From a bacterium (GTDB lineage Bacteria; Electryoneota; RPQS01): a stretch of DNA of 32,114 bases. A program made the position numbers and the translations under genes. This document shows, in pieces, positions 15 through 24,612 of the stretch (positions are counted from its first letter, which is position 1; each line of letters starts with the position of its first letter). The stretch spans positions 1-32,114 of the forward strand of contig JAHIZR010000060.1 in the NCBI GenBank assembly GCA_018814465.1, read 5' to 3'. Under the pieces are notes generated by a model, which ran no database searches, was not told the origin of the DNA, and saw nothing but the letters and a program-made list of their open reading frames with translations.

Positions 15-43
15 GAAAGCCCTCGGTTGAGATCGGGGGCTTT
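15..43. terminator. Hairpin terminator-like module, copy 1
   Basis: gAAAGCCCTCGgttgagatCGGGGGCTTTTa. Confidence 0.6.
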
Positions 44-142
44 TAATGTTTGAATGAAGCGGGATTTCGGGTAATCAGTCGCGTACTAATATTTTCTTCC
101 CACTACCCACCCCAGTAAGCGAGTACTCGCGCTTATAAATTT

Positions 143-216
143 GTTCCGGCAGGGTACCGTGCCCGAAAATTCTCGTATTGTCGGAGCTGTTCGGCGCTTA
201 GAGCCTGCGCGGCGGG
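143..216 (+). repeat. Interspersed intergenic hairpin repeat, long form (copy a, diverged)
   Basis: gttccggcaggg...ggcgcttagagcctgcgcggcggg; ends match the other copies and the GCAGG/CCTGC stem is kept. Confidence 0.6.
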
Positions 217-2853: not shown

Positions 2854-2924
2854 ATTCCGGCCGGGTTGCGCACTTCCACTCGCTCGTTTACAGGAAGTAT
2901 TCTGTGCTTAACCCGGCTCGGCGA
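2854..2924 (+). repeat. Interspersed intergenic hairpin repeat, long form (copy b)
   Basis: attccggccgggttgcgcac-N-tctgtgcttaacccggctcggcga. Confidence 0.85.
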
Positions 2925-3002
2925 GCCTTTTCGCCAATTCTCCTATGATAATCAGGGGATACGATCCGGTAGAGATTATTATCAACAAAGATAGAATGGA
3001 AC

Positions 3003-3842
3003 ATGAGTAAACGAATTATTGTCGGACTGGACGGAAGCCTGTTCGCGGAAGCGGCGATGGACGCAGCGATCGATCGCGCGTCGCGCTGCGATGGTACGAT
3101 CGTCGGAGTCGCGGTGATCGATCAACCGGGGATCGAGCATTCCGAAGCCGGCGCGGGAGCCGGAGCGGCTTACTTTGCGAGAGACATCATCGACAAGAAG
3201 ATGTCCGAGGCATTGGCGAAGACGCGCGATTTATTGATTCACTTTGCGGACCGGTGCCGAACAGCGGAAGTCAAATATGAGCTGGCCCGCGAGGAAGGAG
3301 TGCCGTTCGATGCGTTGGTGGAATACGGCAGGGCGAGCGATATGATGATCGTCGGTCAGCATACGCACTTTCAATATGACACGGATGCGCGGCCCGGGGG
3401 GACGGTGAAGCGGTTGATGAATCATCCGGTCGTGCCCGTGCTGGCGGTTCCGGAGAAATGGATCGCACCGCAGCACGTGATCATTGCTTATGACAGTTCG
3501 ATCCATACGACACGGGCAATGCGGGCGTTTGTGCATCAACAGAATATCGTTCCGTTCGCCGAAGATGTAACGCTGCTTTATGTCAATGACGAGGATGTAG
3601 ACGCAGTTATCCGGCATGAACTTGATTTGGCTGAGAAGTATTTGCGCGCGCACGGATTGAAAGTAAGCAGGATGAGCCGAAAGGGGAAGGTGGGGCGGCT
3701 ATTAGTGGAAGCCGCGCAGGAATTCAATCCCTGCATGATCGTGATGGGGTCCTCGCGGCAGAGTTGGTTGACGGAGCTGTTGAGCGGATCGGTGGAGGAG
3801 CAGCTGATTAAGCACAGTATCCCGGTGTTTGTGTTCGAATAG
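3003..3842 (+). CDS. Universal stress protein, tandem UspA-like domains
   Basis: 279 aa; N-terminal IIVGLDGSLFAEAAMDAAI, second domain HVIIAYDSSIHTTRAMRAF, C-terminal CMIVMGSSRQSWLTELLSGSVEEQLIKHSIPVFVFE, the UspA nucleotide-binding pattern. Confidence 0.93.
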   Translation: MSKRIIVGLDGSLFAEAAMDAAIDRASRCDGTIVGVAVIDQPGIEHSEAGAGAGAAYFARDIIDKKMSEALAKTRDLLIHFADRCRTAEVKYELAREEGVPFDALVEYGRASDMMIVGQHTHFQYDTDARPGGTVKRLMNHPVVPVLAVPEKWIAPQHVIIAYDSSIHTTRAMRAFVHQQNIVPFAEDVTLLYVNDEDVDAVIRHELDLAEKYLRAHGLKVSRMSRKGKVGRLLVEAAQEFNPCMIVMGSSRQSWLTELLSGSVEEQLIKHSIPVFVFE

Positions 3843-3861
3843 AAGAGATTATTTCCCTTGA

Positions 3862-3881
3862 TCCCTCCGTGAACGGAGGGA
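3862..3881. repeat. TGAA-loop hairpin module
   Basis: tccctccg-tgaa-cggaggga, perfect 8 bp stem directly before the terminator at 3889. Confidence 0.7.
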
Positions 3882-3888
3882 GATAAAG

Positions 3889-3917
3889 AAAGCCCTCGGT
3901 GAAGATCGAGGGCTTTA
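3889..3917. terminator. Bidirectional terminator-like hairpin between convergent usp and beta-helix genes
   Basis: AAAGCCCTCG-gtgaagat-CGAGGGCTTTaattttt, perfect 10 bp stem. Confidence 0.75.
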
Positions 3918-4011
3918 ATTTTTGAGTGAAGCAGGAGTCCGGATAATCTATTCGCGACACGCGGGAGCGTGCTGCTTAGTACTGAATGACATTAGGTAGG
4001 CTCGCGTGAAG

Positions 4012-4084
4012 ATTCCGGCAGGGTTGCGCGCCTACTTGAATCTCGTAATGGAAAAGATGTTCGGCGCTTAACCCTGCTCGGCGG
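4012..4084 (+). repeat. Interspersed intergenic hairpin repeat, long form (copy c)
   Basis: attccggcagggttgcgcgc-N-ggcgcttaaccctgctcggcgg; compensatory CAGGG/CCCTG stem. Confidence 0.85.
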
Positions 4085-11411: not shown

Positions 11412-11486
11412 ATTCCGGCAGGGTTGCGCTGAAAATATGTTGTGCCTGCAAGAAAAAGGAATTGGCTGCTTAACCCTGCTCGGCGG
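11412..11486 (+). repeat. Interspersed intergenic hairpin repeat, long form (copy d)
   Basis: attccggcagggttgcgct-N-tgcttaaccctgctcggcgg. Confidence 0.85.
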
Positions 11487-11496
11487 GAAGGATAGA

Positions 11497-11567
11497 ATTC
11501 CGGCCGGGTTGCGCACCATTACAGATTTGTTTGCTGAACATTCTCTGTGCTTAGCCCGGCTCGGCGG
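11497..11567 (+). repeat. Interspersed intergenic hairpin repeat, long form (copy e), tandem with copy d
   Basis: attccggccgggttgcgcac-N-ctgtgcttagcccggctcggcgg. Confidence 0.85.
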
Positions 11568-11930: not shown

Positions 11931-11963
11931 ATTCCGGGCACCCGGGGACGGGCGCCTCGGCGG
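11931..11963 (+). repeat. Interspersed repeat, short form
   Basis: attccgggcacccggggacgggcgcctcggcgg; same 5' ATTCCGG and 3' CTCGGCGG ends as the long form; near-identical to 24580-24612. Confidence 0.8.
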
Positions 11964-11971
11964 AACATTAT

Positions 11972-12044
11972 GTTCCGGGTAAGGTTGCGCATCTAAAAAT
12001 GATACGATAACCGAGCGATTTCTGCGCTTAGCTCGGCTCGGCGA
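11972..12044 (+). repeat. Interspersed intergenic hairpin repeat, long form (copy f)
   Basis: gttccgggtaaggttgcgcat-N-ctgcgcttagctcggctcggcga. Confidence 0.75.
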
Positions 12045-17271: not shown

Positions 17272-17302
17272 CCGGGTGGAAGATCAATTCCACCCGGTTT
17301 TT
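17272..17302 (+). terminator. Rho-independent terminator after the HD-domain gene
   Basis: CCGGGTGGA-agatcaat-TCCACCCGG-TTTTT. Confidence 0.85.
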
Positions 17303-17316
17303 GTTGGAAAAGCGCA

Positions 17317-17345
17317 TTGACTTCAAAACCGAAATTTTCTATATT
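17317..17345 (+). promoter_or_regulatory. Candidate sigma70-type promoter for the LVIVD gene
   Basis: TTGACT (17317-17322) - 17 nt - TATATT (17340-17345), 33 nt before the ATG. Confidence 0.65.
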
Positions 17346-17378
17346 AGGATTATCCAATCTTATAAAGCGGGTATAGAA

Positions 17379-19511
17379 ATGAGAAAGATGTTGTCGATTA
17401 CAGTCGTGATGTGCATGTTCATCGGCGCGGCTATCGCACAAGACAGCTTGAACGTGCGTCAGATGAGCAGGCTTGAGGATTATTGGGATGCAACGCAAGC
17501 ACTCGAAATCGTCGACACTCTGGCCTTCGTGGCAACCGGCCGGACGGGATTACGGATCGTCAGCTTTGCGGACACAGCGAATCCGATAGAGGCAGGTTAT
17601 ATTCTTTTTCCGACAAGTGTCGTCGATGTAGCGGTGAGGGGCAATTATGCATTTGTAGCCAACTATCGATTTACAGTTGTTGATATATCGAATCCAGCCT
17701 CACCGACCGAAATAGGAAGCCTGCAGTCCGTATCAGCGGAAAATATCTGCCTGTCCGGTGACTACGCATATGTCTCTGATAACTGGGGCGGTCTGAATAT
17801 TCTTGATATTGCCGATCCCGCTAATCCATCGTTAGCAGGTTCCTTAAACCTTCCGGATGATGCAATGGATTTTGATGTGGCGGGAAGTCTGTTGTATTCA
17901 GCAACCTCGGATGCAGGACTGTTAATTATCGACATAAGCGATCCGGCTAATCCGGAACAAATCGGCGCTTTCGATACTCCCGGTTCGGCGATGGGGGTTA
18001 CTGTGGAAGGCAATTACGCTTTTATCGCTGACTATAATGAAGGTCTTCGGATTATTAGCATCTCTAATCCATCCAATCCACAGGAGGTGGGTTATATCGA
18101 TGACATCGGCAGTGCAAACGATGTAGCGGTATCTGGAGCGTATGTATATGTTGCCGACCGCAACTGGCAGAGTGGCCTTTATATTATTGACATCACGAAT
18201 CCCGCGGCACCGGAAGAAGCTGCCTTGCTTGAGCTGCAGGACTTCACACTCAGCCTGGAAGCTGCCGGCAATACTGTTTTTATCGCCGAGGAGTTTTCCG
18301 GCTTGCGGATTATCGATGTGTTCTCACCATCAACTCCTGCGGAAGCAGGCTGCTTCTGGGGAAAGGGACGTGCCAATGCAGTCGCAGTCTCAGGCGATTT
18401 TGTGTATTTGGGAGGAGGGAGCGAGTTGCGAATTATCAGTATTGCCGATCCCGAGGCTCCGCTGGAAATCGGAAACTGTGAAACGCCGGGTGCAATTGGC
18501 GGGATTGCCGTATCGGGGAATTTTGCCTATGTTGCAGACAACAGGGAAGGACTGCGAGTGATCGATATCTCAAATCCGGCGCTTCCATCTGAGATCAGTT
18601 TTTCTTCGGCGGGGAACGAAGCAAATGATGTAGCGGTGCAAGGCAATTATGCCTACGTTGCTGATGAGGAAAGAGGTCTAATAGTGATAGATATTACCGA
18701 TCCTCATGCGCCGATAGAAGCAGCTTGTATCGGAACGCCCAATATTACGCAGGATGTTGCGGTATCAGGAAATTATGCATATCTCGCGGACGGTCTGGGA
18801 GGGCTTCGCATAATCGACATGACAAATCCATCCAGTCCCTTCGAAGCAGGCGCTTTCGAAGACATCCATAATGCGTGTGGTGTGGCGGCATGCGGCAACT
18901 ATGCATATGTGGCGGATCGAGGTCTGACGAGCGGTCTTTGGATTATTGATGTGACGAATCCCGCGACTCCCTTCGAGACCGGACGATATCAGACTTCCGG
19001 GCATGGCAACGACGTTGCAGTACTCGGCCACTATGCCTATATCGCTGATGATGATGAAGGTTTGAGAGTTATTGACATTTCTGATCCAACAGCTCCTTTT
19101 GAATCCGGCTATTACGATACTCGAGGAACGTCCATGGATTTAGCCGTAGCGGGCGACTATGCGTATGTAGCGGATTATATCTATTTCGGAATCTACGATT
19201 GTTCGGAGGCTTTAGTCGAATCAGGCAGCAACGAAATCCCGAGCCCCAACTCCGTAAGGCTTTATCAGAGTTATCCGAATCCATTTAATCCGACAACGAC
19301 AATTCGTTTTGACCTAACGATGACAAGCGAGGTGTCGCTGGAGGTCTATAACATAGCAGGGCAAAGAGTGGAGACTCTTGCCGAAAGTCCGATGCTGCCG
19401 GGAACACATGTGTTTGAGTTTGATGGGTCACAAGTTTCTTCAGGGACGTATTATTATACTCTGCGAACAGGCGCGTTTCTGGAGACGAAACAAATGGTGC
19501 TGATTAAATGA
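17379..19511 (+). CDS. Exported LVIVD-repeat beta-propeller protein with C-terminal T9SS-type sorting domain
   Basis: ATG at 17379: MRKMLSITVVMCMFIGAAIAQ signal peptide; 14 repeats of ~42 aa (VAVSGNYAYVADxxxGLRIIDISNPxxPxExG); C-terminus YQSYPNPFNPTTTIRFDL...MVLIK. Confidence 0.92.
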   Translation: MRKMLSITVVMCMFIGAAIAQDSLNVRQMSRLEDYWDATQALEIVDTLAFVATGRTGLRIVSFADTANPIEAGYILFPTSVVDVAVRGNYAFVANYRFTVVDISNPASPTEIGSLQSVSAENICLSGDYAYVSDNWGGLNILDIADPANPSLAGSLNLPDDAMDFDVAGSLLYSATSDAGLLIIDISDPANPEQIGAFDTPGSAMGVTVEGNYAFIADYNEGLRIISISNPSNPQEVGYIDDIGSANDVAVSGAYVYVADRNWQSGLYIIDITNPAAPEEAALLELQDFTLSLEAAGNTVFIAEEFSGLRIIDVFSPSTPAEAGCFWGKGRANAVAVSGDFVYLGGGSELRIISIADPEAPLEIGNCETPGAIGGIAVSGNFAYVADNREGLRVIDISNPALPSEISFSSAGNEANDVAVQGNYAYVADEERGLIVIDITDPHAPIEAACIGTPNITQDVAVSGNYAYLADGLGGLRIIDMTNPSSPFEAGAFEDIHNACGVAACGNYAYVADRGLTSGLWIIDVTNPATPFETGRYQTSGHGNDVAVLGHYAYIADDDEGLRVIDISDPTAPFESGYYDTRGTSMDLAVAGDYAYVADYIYFGIYDCSEALVESGSNEIPSPNSVRLYQSYPNPFNPTTTIRFDLTMTSEVSLEVYNIAGQRVETLAESPMLPGTHVFEFDGSQVSSGTYYYTLRTGAFLETKQMVLIK

Positions 19512-19720: not shown

Positions 19721-21691
19721 ATGAAGTCTGCACCTCTTGCCTTTCTGCTTGTTCTAACTTTAACAATTTCAGCATTTTCAGTAAATTATCCGGAGCATGC
19801 CCGGATTAAAGGACCCGTCCTGCTGACCGGAATGGAAGACACTTCATTCCCCGAAAACTATCAGGCGCCGCGCTCGATGAATTTCACCCTGGATGAGGGC
19901 ACACCGGGATCCGTGTATTATACGGTCGGAACCACTTATTATGACAATCAGCACAACGGCACCGCCGGGAAACAGCTTGCGGTGGATCAGGGTGGTTTTG
20001 TGCATCATGTCTGGACAAAGGGATTGGAGGCCGGTTCAGCGACCCGGCACGTTTATTACCGGTGCTGGGAGCCGTCAAGTGGCGAGTTCATTCAAGGTGA
20101 TGAAACTCAAATCGATGCTTCCAATCGCGCCGGTTTTGTCACGGTGGCGGCGCGGCCGGACGGATTCGCATTTCCGGCTTTTCATCAGATTCTGGTTCCG
20201 GGCGGCGATCCGCATGCAGCGGTGGCGATAGATTTCTTGCCCAGATCCGGCGCATATCTGTCTTCACAGATTCCACTGCTGCCGAATGAGGCAATGGTGA
20301 TCTGGCCGAAAATCGATATCGATATTGAAGGAAATGTGCATACGGTCAGCACGGAAAGCGAAGGGGATGGATTAGAGTATTATGCGAAGGGATTTCCGCA
20401 GTACGATGAATTCGGTTTCGGCGAGGGCATTCTGTGGCCCGATGGTTTTATGCAATGGGATTCTTCGACTTTCATCACGCTGGATGTCTCGACTTCCTGG
20501 CATTCCAACCGCGTCGCCGTGGCTTGGATTAAGGATCCTATCGGACTGCAATTTGCCGATTACGGCGACTATGACGGCTATAATGTCTGGCTGAAGATTT
20601 CGGAAGACGGCGGAGTGAATTGGGGAGAATCGATTCCGGTGACGAATATTCCGCCGATTGATACGATGTGCGTCTTGCTGGGCGGAGATCCGACAATCTG
20701 CAATGCCGATACGATGCACCCCTGGCTGGACTGTTCAGTGCTGCTGGACGATAACGATGTCGCACATGTGGCGTTTTCCGCCTCCGGCAATTTCTATTGG
20801 GATGACTCGGGGGCTGTCAATGTTAATGCGGGGCTGGTATTCAGCAGTATCTGGCACTGGGGAGAGGATCGCGAAGAGTTCAACATCATCAACGAAGCAT
20901 GGTTCAGTCACACTTCCGTGTCGCTCGGTGTGAATAATCTGATGACGCACCGCCCGAATCTGGCCATTGATACCATCACGGGATATCTATATTGTTCGTT
21001 TGTGGAATTCGACAGCGTGCAAATCAGCTTGGGCGGCTATCCCAGCGGCGATTCCTATATGTCGGTGTCAACCGACGGGGGGCAAACGTGGGCGGAGAAG
21101 ACCAATATCTCTAATACCGTCGGATCCAATGGCGGCATTGATACTCCGGCGGGTGAGTGCGCGAGCGAGCGTGACGTGATGCTGGCGAAGTTTGTCACGG
21201 ATGGAATCATTCATGTGCAGTACCAGCTTGATCTTGACAACGGGACTTCGATCATGGATACTCCGGAAGGAGTGCCGACAAACAACCCGATTATTTATCA
21301 GAGAATTCCGGTCGAAGATATTCCGACAACTCCGATTATCAATCCGTTCCGCGCGTTTCGTGCGGATTCCACCGGCTATCCGTGGGTGTTGGGGATCGCG
21401 GAAAGGAATCGTGAAGCTGTTCCGCACGATTTCACCTTGTATCAGAATTATCCGAATCCGTTCAATCCGACAACTCATATTCAGTTCGACCTGCAAAGTC
21501 AGACACAGCCTGTCCTGACCGTGTTCGATGTGATGGGCCGCGAGGTCGCCAGACTACTGAACGGGCAGACGATGTCCGCGGGAACACATGTCGTGGAATT
21601 CGACGCGACCGGATTGTCCTCGGGAGTCTATTTCTATCGTCTGGAGACTCCGCTGCACAATACGACACGGAAGATGATGCTGATAAAGTGA
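19721..21691 (+). CDS. Exported BNR/sialidase-like protein with C-terminal T9SS-type sorting domain
   Basis: Signal peptide MKSAPLAFLLVLTLTISAFS; SxDGGxxWGE/STDGGQTWAEKTN Asp-box motifs; C-terminus LYQNYPNPFNPTTHIQFDL...KMMLIK. Confidence 0.82.
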   Translation: MKSAPLAFLLVLTLTISAFSVNYPEHARIKGPVLLTGMEDTSFPENYQAPRSMNFTLDEGTPGSVYYTVGTTYYDNQHNGTAGKQLAVDQGGFVHHVWTKGLEAGSATRHVYYRCWEPSSGEFIQGDETQIDASNRAGFVTVAARPDGFAFPAFHQILVPGGDPHAAVAIDFLPRSGAYLSSQIPLLPNEAMVIWPKIDIDIEGNVHTVSTESEGDGLEYYAKGFPQYDEFGFGEGILWPDGFMQWDSSTFITLDVSTSWHSNRVAVAWIKDPIGLQFADYGDYDGYNVWLKISEDGGVNWGESIPVTNIPPIDTMCVLLGGDPTICNADTMHPWLDCSVLLDDNDVAHVAFSASGNFYWDDSGAVNVNAGLVFSSIWHWGEDREEFNIINEAWFSHTSVSLGVNNLMTHRPNLAIDTITGYLYCSFVEFDSVQISLGGYPSGDSYMSVSTDGGQTWAEKTNISNTVGSNGGIDTPAGECASERDVMLAKFVTDGIIHVQYQLDLDNGTSIMDTPEGVPTNNPIIYQRIPVEDIPTTPIINPFRAFRADSTGYPWVLGIAERNREAVPHDFTLYQNYPNPFNPTTHIQFDLQSQTQPVLTVFDVMGREVARLLNGQTMSAGTHVVEFDATGLSSGVYFYRLETPLHNTTRKMMLIK

Positions 21692-21762
21692 TTCCGGCCT
21701 GGTTGCGCACATCAAATGACTCGATGGTTGTACGATCTCTGTGCTTAGCCCGGCTCGGCGGA
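21691..21762 (+). repeat. Interspersed intergenic hairpin repeat, long form (copy h)
   Basis: attccggcctggttgcgcac-N-ctgtgcttagcccggctcggcgg; its first base is the last base of the upstream stop codon. Confidence 0.85.
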
Positions 21763-21795: not shown

Positions 21796-21816
21796 GTGCT
21801 TAGCCCGGCTTGGCGA
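21796..21816 (+). repeat. Half copy (right arm only) of the interspersed repeat
   Basis: gtgcttagcccggcttggcga matches the right arm of copies h and i; no left arm. Confidence 0.65.
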
Positions 21817-21859: not shown

Positions 21860-23224
21860 ATGAACTGCCGACTGCCTGCTGCCTTACTGATCGCGCTTCT
21901 TATACTAAATCATACGGAGACCGAAGCACGACCGATACCGTCCGCCCTTGACTCAACAGACCGAGTAACTTATGTGTATGACGGCCCGCCGGTATTTTTC
22001 GGACCGACCAACGCGACTGTTGAAATCGAAGTGGCGGACGTCTTTGACATCAATGATGTAGACGTCCTCGTTTCCATCCAGCATACTTGGGATTCCGATG
22101 TCACGCTGCGATTGGAAAATCCCGCGGGAGAAACAGTTGTTTTAGTGGATTTCGCCGGGGAAAGCGGCCATAACTTCACGAATACCGTCTTCAACGATGA
22201 TGCGGCGCAGTCGATTATGCAGGGTTCCGCTCCCTTTACCGGAAGTTATCGGCCCTTAGAGCCGCTTTCGCGATTCAACGGAGGAAGCGGAACGGGAACC
22301 TGGATTCTGCATCTCGAAGATACGTTCCCGAGTGTGGATGACGGAATGCTGTCGGTTTTCGAACTGACACTCGGGGGACGAATCGGGGGAGTTGTCCGCG
22401 GCCGCGTGACTGAGCTGGCAACACAACTGCCAATGAGCGGAGTGCGGCTCGAGTATATTGACACACCCTATTCCACGATCACGGACGAACAGGGATATTA
22501 TCTGCTGAATTCGGCGGAAGGCACATTTGATCTGCTTGTTTCCTATCCCTTCTGGTGCTCGGAAGAGGTGGCCTCGATTGAGGTGACGGAGGATGATACG
22601 CTCGATTACGACTTCCAATTAGGGAAACCGGAAGCGGAATTGTCGATCAGTTCTCTGAATATTCTGGCGATACAGAACGAGATTTCGACCGAATCCTTTG
22701 AAATCAACAACACGGGCAACTGTCCGCTTGACTGGTCACTGTTGATCGAGGAAGACTGGATCACTTCGAACACGATGAGCGGAGCGATCCCCGGCGAAAC
22801 AGGTTGGGATTTCGAAATAAATGTCGATGCAAACGATCTGGAAATCGGAGACTACCTTTCGCGCATCGTGATCACTCATAACGCTGAAGGGTCTCCGCAT
22901 TCGATACCGGTCTTTGTCAGCGTGATTGCGCTGGAGGCAGGCGATTCGCATGCGATTCCGCAGGGCTTTGCTTTGCTGGGCAGCTATCCGAATCCTTTCA
23001 ACGCAGCGACATCCATACGTTACGCGCTTCCGTCACAGAGTGATGTGCGGCTTCTGTTGTATACGAATACGGGCCGGCTGATCAAGGAGATGACGGAGAA
23101 CCGTGCAGCGCCGGGGATTCATGAATTCCGACTCGATCTTTCGACCGCGGCGAGCGGGCTGTATTTCGCTCAACTGACGGCGGGCGATTTTTCAGCTGTG
23201 CAGAAACTTATCCTGATTAAATAG
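21860..23224 (+). CDS. Exported protein with proprotein-convertase P-domain, carboxypeptidase-regulatory-like domain, BACON-like segment and C-terminal sorting domain
   Basis: VDVLVSIQHTWDSDVTLRLENPAGETVVL...FNGGSGTGTWILHLEDT (P-domain); GVVRGRVTELATQLPMSGVRLEY...TDEQGYYLL; C-terminus GSYPNPFNAATSIRYAL...KLILIK. Confidence 0.87.
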   Translation: MNCRLPAALLIALLILNHTETEARPIPSALDSTDRVTYVYDGPPVFFGPTNATVEIEVADVFDINDVDVLVSIQHTWDSDVTLRLENPAGETVVLVDFAGESGHNFTNTVFNDDAAQSIMQGSAPFTGSYRPLEPLSRFNGGSGTGTWILHLEDTFPSVDDGMLSVFELTLGGRIGGVVRGRVTELATQLPMSGVRLEYIDTPYSTITDEQGYYLLNSAEGTFDLLVSYPFWCSEEVASIEVTEDDTLDYDFQLGKPEAELSISSLNILAIQNEISTESFEINNTGNCPLDWSLLIEEDWITSNTMSGAIPGETGWDFEINVDANDLEIGDYLSRIVITHNAEGSPHSIPVFVSVIALEAGDSHAIPQGFALLGSYPNPFNAATSIRYALPSQSDVRLLLYTNTGRLIKEMTENRAAPGIHEFRLDLSTAASGLYFAQLTAGDFSAVQKLILIK

Positions 23225-24390: not shown

Positions 24391-24461
24391 ATTCCGGCCG
24401 GGTTGCGCACCTCAAATGACTCGATTACTGGACGATTTCTGTGCTTAGCCCGGCTCGGCGA
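24391..24461 (+). repeat. Interspersed intergenic hairpin repeat, long form (copy i)
   Basis: attccggccgggttgcgcac-N-ctgtgcttagcccggctcggcga. Confidence 0.88.
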
Positions 24462-24531
24462 ACCTTTTTACACGGCGATTTCTTGTTATGATATAGGTTC
24501 TTTGTCCCTCCGTGAACGGGGGGGAGATAAG

Positions 24532-24559
24532 AAAGCCCTCGCAGATGCGGGGGCTTTTT
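24532..24559. terminator. Terminator-like hairpin between hisC and the TolB-like gene
   Basis: AAAGCCCTCG-cagatg-CGGGGGCTTTTT, preceded by tccctccgtgaacggggggga. Confidence 0.75.
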
Positions 24560-24579: not shown

Positions 24580-24612
24580 ATTCCGGGCACCCGGGGACGG
24601 GCGCCTCGGCGG
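24580..24612 (+). repeat. Interspersed repeat, short form
   Basis: attccgggcacccggggacgggcgcctcggcgg, near-identical to 11931-11963. Confidence 0.8.

What the first reader, a model, noticed from the sequence alone, without database searches (positions are those of the whole stretch)
2854..4084. Compensatory stem change between repeat copies
Copies b, e and i read GGCCGGGTT...AACCCGG or AGCCCGG, while copies c and d read GGCAGGGTT...AACCCTGC. The C-to-A change in the left arm is matched by G-to-T in the right arm, so pairing is kept. Copy a retains GCAGG/CCTGC even though the inner stem has decayed. This suggests selection on pairing rather than on primary sequence.
Basis: seen in the sequence. 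Interest (0 to 1): 0.6.

Follow-up and report, generated by a model that had tools for sequence, protein, structure and literature searches.

The report
REP hairpin repeats with matched stems
The matched stem changes are real and mark a large family of scattered DNA hairpins (REP elements) that a transposase-like enzyme has probably spread through an uncultured bacterial order; such matched changes are typical of REPs, but this lineage has its own end sequence, lies in one direction relative to GC skew (a sign of replication direction), and is arranged head-to-tail.

Summary
Copies b, e and i carry GCCGGG/CCCGGC arms; copies c and d carry GCAGGG/CCCTGC. Genome-wide (at least 132 long copies) that pair is C-G in about 86, A-T in 20, G-C in 3, and not Watson-Crick in about 20. 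Covariation also holds at other pairs and in related genomes, above every shuffle. The two arm types mostly mark two inherited subfamilies, but copy d, the G-C copies and the relatives are further events.

The elements are REPs: intergenic, palindromic, over 100 copies. Termini are constant (TTCCGG...CTCGGCG); stems vary but stay paired. In related genomes, RAYT genes (REP-associated tyrosine transposases) are flanked by inverted copies with the same termini, and those RAYTs form one clade. The mid-stem AA/GC mismatch equals that of E. coli REP.

Differences from described REPs: the foot is CCGA, not GTAG; all 22 close pairs in this genome are direct repeats; orientation follows GC skew (p about 1e-10). 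Best reading: non-autonomous hairpins spread by RAYTs on single-stranded DNA at replication forks, the stem kept for recognition. Clear RAYT flanking by this family is shown in relatives only; this genome's one RAYT has a divergent REP. Mobility was not shown directly.

The parts
144..214 (+). copy a, long REP, A-T arm type with GTACCG inner stem (subfamily mark)
2855..2923 (+). copy b, long REP, C-G arm type, between metE-like ORF and UspA-like ORF
4013..4083 (+). copy c, long REP, A-T arm type, between convergent ORFs
11413..11485 (+). copy d, long REP, A-T arm type in a different loop subfamily; head-to-tail with copy e
11498..11566 (+). copy e, long REP, C-G arm type
11932..11963 (+). short 32-base REP with the same termini (TTCCGGGCACCCGGGGACGGGCGCCTCGGCGG)
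11973..12043 (+). copy f, long REP with an unpaired left arm (GGGTAAGG)
21692..21760 (+). copy g, long REP, C-G arm type with one mismatch; the GA before TTCCGG is part of the stop codon TGA of the upstream ORF
21799..21815 (+). copy h, right half of a REP only
24392..24460 (+). copy i, long REP, C-G arm type
24581..24612 (+). short 32-base REP with the same termini

Best explanation
These are REP elements of a RAYT/REP system. Read on the strand that carries the foot, each is 5'-CGCCGA + imperfect hairpin (GCNGGGTT-AA-GC ... GC-GC-AACCCN'GC) + CGGAA-3'. A Y1 HUH transposase (RAYT) of one clade is inferred to recognise the CCGA foot, the paired lower stem and the unpaired AA/GC bulge in single-stranded DNA, and to spread the hairpins as non-autonomous copies. 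The stem therefore must stay paired although its sequence drifts between subfamilies, which gives the compensatory changes. Orientation that follows GC skew points to insertion or retention on one template strand at the replication fork. Shown: hairpin family, covariation, intergenic location, constant termini, RAYTs of one clade flanked by inverted copies in relatives, skew-linked orientation. Inferred: cleavage, transposition, which strand is cut, and that pairing is kept because the RAYT needs it.
For: About 132 copies in this genome, 131/133 intergenic. Covariation far above shuffles and slid registers. Constant termini with varying paired stems in long and short forms. RAYT genes in G001, G005, G009, G010, G011 and G012 carry copies in the outward inverted arrangement, mostly at 1-25 bases. 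Ten such proteins match NCBIfam NF047646, nine over cut-off and one at it; nearest solved structure is E. coli TnpArep 4er8. All REP-flanked RAYTs lie in one 24-member clade, support 100/99. The mid-stem AA/GC mismatch equals that of E. coli REP (PMC8266576). Orientation tracks GC skew inside + genes, - genes and intergenic DNA separately. G006 has no Y1 match and only one marginal repeat hit; its genus-mate G010 has 3 and 35.
Against: In the window's own genome no RAYT is flanked by the long family; the one RAYT found (C405) is flanked by inverted copies of a divergent REP. With strict matching only 9 of 24 clade RAYTs (1 of 21 others) have a copy in the expected orientation within 150 bases, Fisher p = 0.012, and 5 of 26 nearby copies lie the other way. 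No empty site could be read. The GTAG foot of known RAYT substrates is absent. In G011 alone the skew association is not significant.
Confidence: 0.8

Rival explanations
1. The hairpin acts in RNA, as a 3'-end stability, processing or terminator element of transcripts, and selection on RNA pairing keeps the stem.
For: Copies lie near gene 3' ends, median about 90-100 bases. The stem is long and stable. Known REPs do stabilise or end transcripts (general knowledge; PMC3733652).
Against: Copies occur in both orientations to genes, and orientation follows GC skew rather than gene direction, with genes slightly more often opposite. No Rfam match. G:T departures at the outer pairs do not clearly exceed A:C. 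Constant termini and RAYT flanking are not explained.
Confidence: 0.1
2. The stem change is only shared ancestry: two subfamilies with different stems and no selection on pairing.
For: A-T arms sit mainly in one loop subfamily.
Confidence: 0.05
3. Integron attC sites or another recombination site.
For: Imperfect palindromes of similar length with constant ends, in one orientation along a contig.
Against: attC has AAC in the 5' arm and GTT in the 3' arm (general knowledge); here it is GTT then AAC, and so on either strand. Genes between copies are ordinary chromosomal genes in both directions.
Confidence: 0.01

Closest known systems
GTAG REP / RAYT systems (REPtrons), above all RAYT group 2 (TnpA subclass 2.2) with bulged REPs as in E. 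coli (PMC2817692, PMC3733652, PMC8266576)
   Same: Many intergenic imperfect palindromes near gene 3' ends; RAYT genes with two inverted REPs, foot outward; DHLH and Y..xNP motifs, about 160 residues; same AA/GC mid-stem mismatch; stems with complementary changes between subfamilies.
   Different: Foot is CCGA, not GT(A/G)G; the RAYT residues that read GTAG (Q95, H101, R104) are mostly replaced; loops up to about 40 bases and more; direct rather than inverted close pairs; orientation linked to GC skew.
TnpA_Y1 class 3 elements with CnGA foot (PMC6006769)
   Same: 5' tetranucleotide foot fits CnGA; hairpins in high copy number.
   Different: The proteins here have the class 2 signature Y---NP, not class 3 Y----Q.
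REPINs (PMC3116915)
   Same: Non-autonomous REP-derived hairpins thought to be moved by RAYTs.
   Different: A REPIN is two inverted REPs; here single hairpins occur alone or head-to-tail.
CGTC-tagged REPs (PMC3733652)
   Same: Palindromic, non-GTAG tag.
   Different: Tag is CCGA next to the stem; CGTC repeats have no RAYT association, these do.

Membership tests
REP elements (broad sense) | High-copy palindromic repeat, mainly intergenic | tested here: met
   At least 132 long copies, 131/133 intergenic
REP elements (broad sense) | Stem pairing preserved by complementary changes | tested here: met
REP elements (broad sense) | Copies flank a RAYT gene in inverted orientation | tested here: met
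   Met in relatives, e.g. L234, L208, L221, L228, L230; in the window's own genome the one RAYT has a divergent REP
GTAG REP superfamily | 5' GT(A/G)G foot next to the stem | tested here: not met
   Foot is CCGA in nearly all copies
CGTC REP superfamily | CGTC tag, no RAYT association | tested here: not met
   Tag CCGA; RAYT association present
RAYT (class 2 TnpA_Y1) | HUH motif, Y---NP motif, match to the curated RAYT model | tested here: met
   nine of ten proteins over cut-off, one at it
TnpA_Y1 class 3 | Y----Q signature | tested here: not met
   Proteins carry Y--xNP
REPIN | Two REPs in inverted orientation as a unit | tested here: not met
   22 of 22 close pairs in G000 are direct
REP/RAYT mobile system | RAYT cuts the single-stranded hairpin; copies move | not testable with these tools
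   Needs biochemistry or strain-level polymorphism; one empty-site attempt failed
Integron attC | AAC in the 5' arm and GTT in the 3' arm | tested here: not met
   Arms read GTT then AAC

The most novel reading that the evidence does not exclude
A separate RAYT/REP lineage, mostly confined to one uncultured order, reads a CCGA foot instead of GTAG. It spreads as single hairpins laid down in one orientation relative to the replication fork and added head-to-tail, rather than as inverted pairs. The changed foot-reading residues of the RAYTs, the shared AA/GC bulge (or its covarying CA/GT form) and the skew-linked orientation make foot recognition and fork coupling directly testable.
Probability: 0.45. 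Interest if true: 0.6.

Novelty: new variant of a known kind. Interest (0 to 1): 0.45.

Why it matters
How REPs spread is still unsettled. The replication-linked orientation and the direct-repeat arrangement argue for a single-stranded, fork-coupled process and against the inverted doublet as the only mobile unit. The lineage also offers a natural swap of foot (GTAG to CCGA) together with a change in the RAYT residues that read the foot, while the AA/GC bulge is kept, so recognition rules can be tested by exchange experiments. The original point, matched stem changes, is on its own an expected property of REPs.

Tried and rejected
Integron attC: core orientation is wrong. Rfam at gathering threshold: no match. 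Strand test by G:T against A:C departures: not decisive at the outer pairs; the large T:G excess at one pair may be inherited by subfamily. Empty-site test, G010 against the REP-poor genus-mate G006: flanking genes align at 76-80% but the intergenic DNA does not, so no boundary or target duplication could be read. Cognate RAYT in the window's own genome: only C405, 47% identical to the G010 RAYT; the weak C381 hit is a response-regulator-like protein. Polarity of the leading strand from rpoB and L2 genes: conflicting weak skews, left open. Naming the phylum: matching contigs are mostly labelled only 'bacterium' MAGs.

Full report
Observation. The window carries seven good long copies and two damaged ones, all on the + strand. 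Copy a also has GCAGG/CCTGC. Its inner GTACCG is shared by several other copies elsewhere in the genome, so it is a subfamily mark and not decay.

Genome-wide test. The window is contig C261 of a 3.29-Mb, 513-contig MAG. A covariance model built from the seven copies finds about 132 copies; only 150 candidates were scored, so this is a lower bound. Over the whole structure 98 cells show a change on both sides against 31.5 in shuffles, and slid registers collapse. In relatives 9 of 16 pairs change on both sides. These controls do not remove relatedness of copies, and the alignments were fitted to the model. The A-T arms mostly belong to one subfamily, so the b/c contrast is largely one inherited event. 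Copy d, the G-C copies and the relatives show further events.

What the element is. The ends are constant (TTCCGG...CTCGGCG, often with GA before and A or G after) and the stems vary while staying paired. Forms of about 32, 41-51 and 69-85 bases share the ends. Interiors include GCAGGG..CCCTGC, GCGGGG..CCCCGC, GGCAGATC..GATCTGCC and CCGGGTT-GC..TT-AACCCGG. Copies are intergenic (131/133 by a simple ORF call) and close to gene 3' ends, in both orientations to genes. The model finds the family in all ten same-family genomes (24-96 copies in nine, one marginal hit in G006), in both same-order genomes and in one genome of another family of the phylum, and mostly not elsewhere in the phylum. An exact-pattern scan of about 85,000 species genomes found it only in a handful of environmental MAGs.

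The transposase. Y1 transposase genes of about 160 residues occur in these genomes. Several are flanked, mostly at 1-25 bases, by inverted copies: the upstream copy lies opposite to the gene, the downstream copy in the same sense, so the CTCGGCG end is outermost. Clear cases are L228 (G001), L221 (G005), L234 (G010), L208 (G011) and L230 (G012); L218 (G005) and L243 (G009) have at least the upstream copy. L234, L243 and L221 carry the CCGGGTT..AACCCGG core itself. Ten tested proteins match the NCBIfam REP-associated tyrosine transposase model, nine over its cut-off and one at it; the nearest solved structure is E. coli TnpArep. A tree of 45 proteins puts all those labelled with such flanks in one 24-member clade at 100/99 support. 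With a strict automatic rule the association is 9/24 against 1/21 (p = 0.012). That clade has W followed mostly by R and then F/Y-D-D-V-P-V-P-G, where GTAG-reading RAYTs keep Q95 and R104 (PMC6006769).

Parallels with E. coli. On the foot-bearing strand the hairpin reads GGGTT-AA-GC...GC-GC-AACCC. The AA/GC mismatch is that of E. coli REP (A12A13-G26C27), for which the unpaired state matters for cleavage (PMC8266576). In the second family of the order it is mostly CA/GT, changed on both sides together and still unpaired. The foot CCGA fits the CnGA foot reported for TnpA_Y1 class 3 (PMC6006769), but the proteins carry the class 2 signature.

Strand and arrangement. Repeat orientation follows GC skew: 45:8 against 15:45 by intergenic skew, p about 1e-10; the same holds inside + genes and inside - genes separately; one vote per locus without the window gives p = 5e-5. 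Other relatives agree (p = 0.001), G011 alone does not reach significance. Genes lie slightly more often opposite to the repeats. Close pairs are all direct in this genome (22/22; some are tandem duplicates, so not all independent), unlike the inverted doublets usual for REPs (PMC3733652; PMC3116915). Both features fit a DNA process tied to replication, as known for the related IS200/IS605 elements (PMC6006769), better than an RNA function. Which template strand is involved is open.

Limits. Transposition was not observed; the empty-site comparison failed. The window's own genome shows only one RAYT, with a divergent flanking REP. The MAG is about 91% complete, so a cognate RAYT may be missing or lost, or C405 may act on this family. 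The ORF calls are simple, and E-values from the short-calibrated model are rough.

Verdict. Such changes are a recognised property of REPs (PMC2817692: 'selection for complementary mutations'; PMC3733652). The added interest lies in the CCGA-footed lineage, its RAYT clade, the head-to-tail arrangement and the replication-linked orientation.

Noticed in passing
window 15-83, 251-288, about 3860-3916, 24505-24557: A second repeated module, CCCTCCGTGAACGGAGGG hairpin followed by AAAGCCCTCG..CGAGGGCTTT with a T-rich tail; it looks like a repeated intrinsic terminator, seen several times in the genome BLAST.
   Followed up: no
window 11973-12043; L067:9533, L072:1839, L079:4151, L113:1533, L090:1606, L091:1576, L064:1573, L089:276: A recurring variant replaces the left arm CCGGG by GTRAGG, or the right arm CCCGG by RTAAGG, which breaks the stem; the same replacements recur in different copies. 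Unexplained.
   Followed up: partly
L100, L102, L112, L115, L117, L120 (loop of the long REP): A short hairpin like CCGGGCGGGTGAGGGCACCCACCACGGCG sits inside the loop of several long copies, as if one REP had inserted in another.
   Followed up: partly
window 21689-21694: The stop codon TGA of ORF 19721-21691 overlaps the GA before TTCCGG of copy g; several other copies also start within a few bases of a stop codon.
   Followed up: partly
L093 / G000:C405 around 2900-3340: The only RAYT found in the window's genome is flanked by inverted CCGGGCAGGTGAAGACACCTGCCGCGGC; no further copies of this REP were found in the fetched stretches.
   Followed up: partly
L253-L289 (record titles): Contigs carrying the repeat include records labelled Candidatus Puniceispirillum (DYHQ01), probably a mislabelled MAG.
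   Followed up: no
window 17301-19511, 19721-21691, 21860-23224: Secreted-looking proteins ending in a YPNPFN motif, typical of C-terminal sorting signals in FCB-group bacteria (recognised from memory).
   Followed up: no
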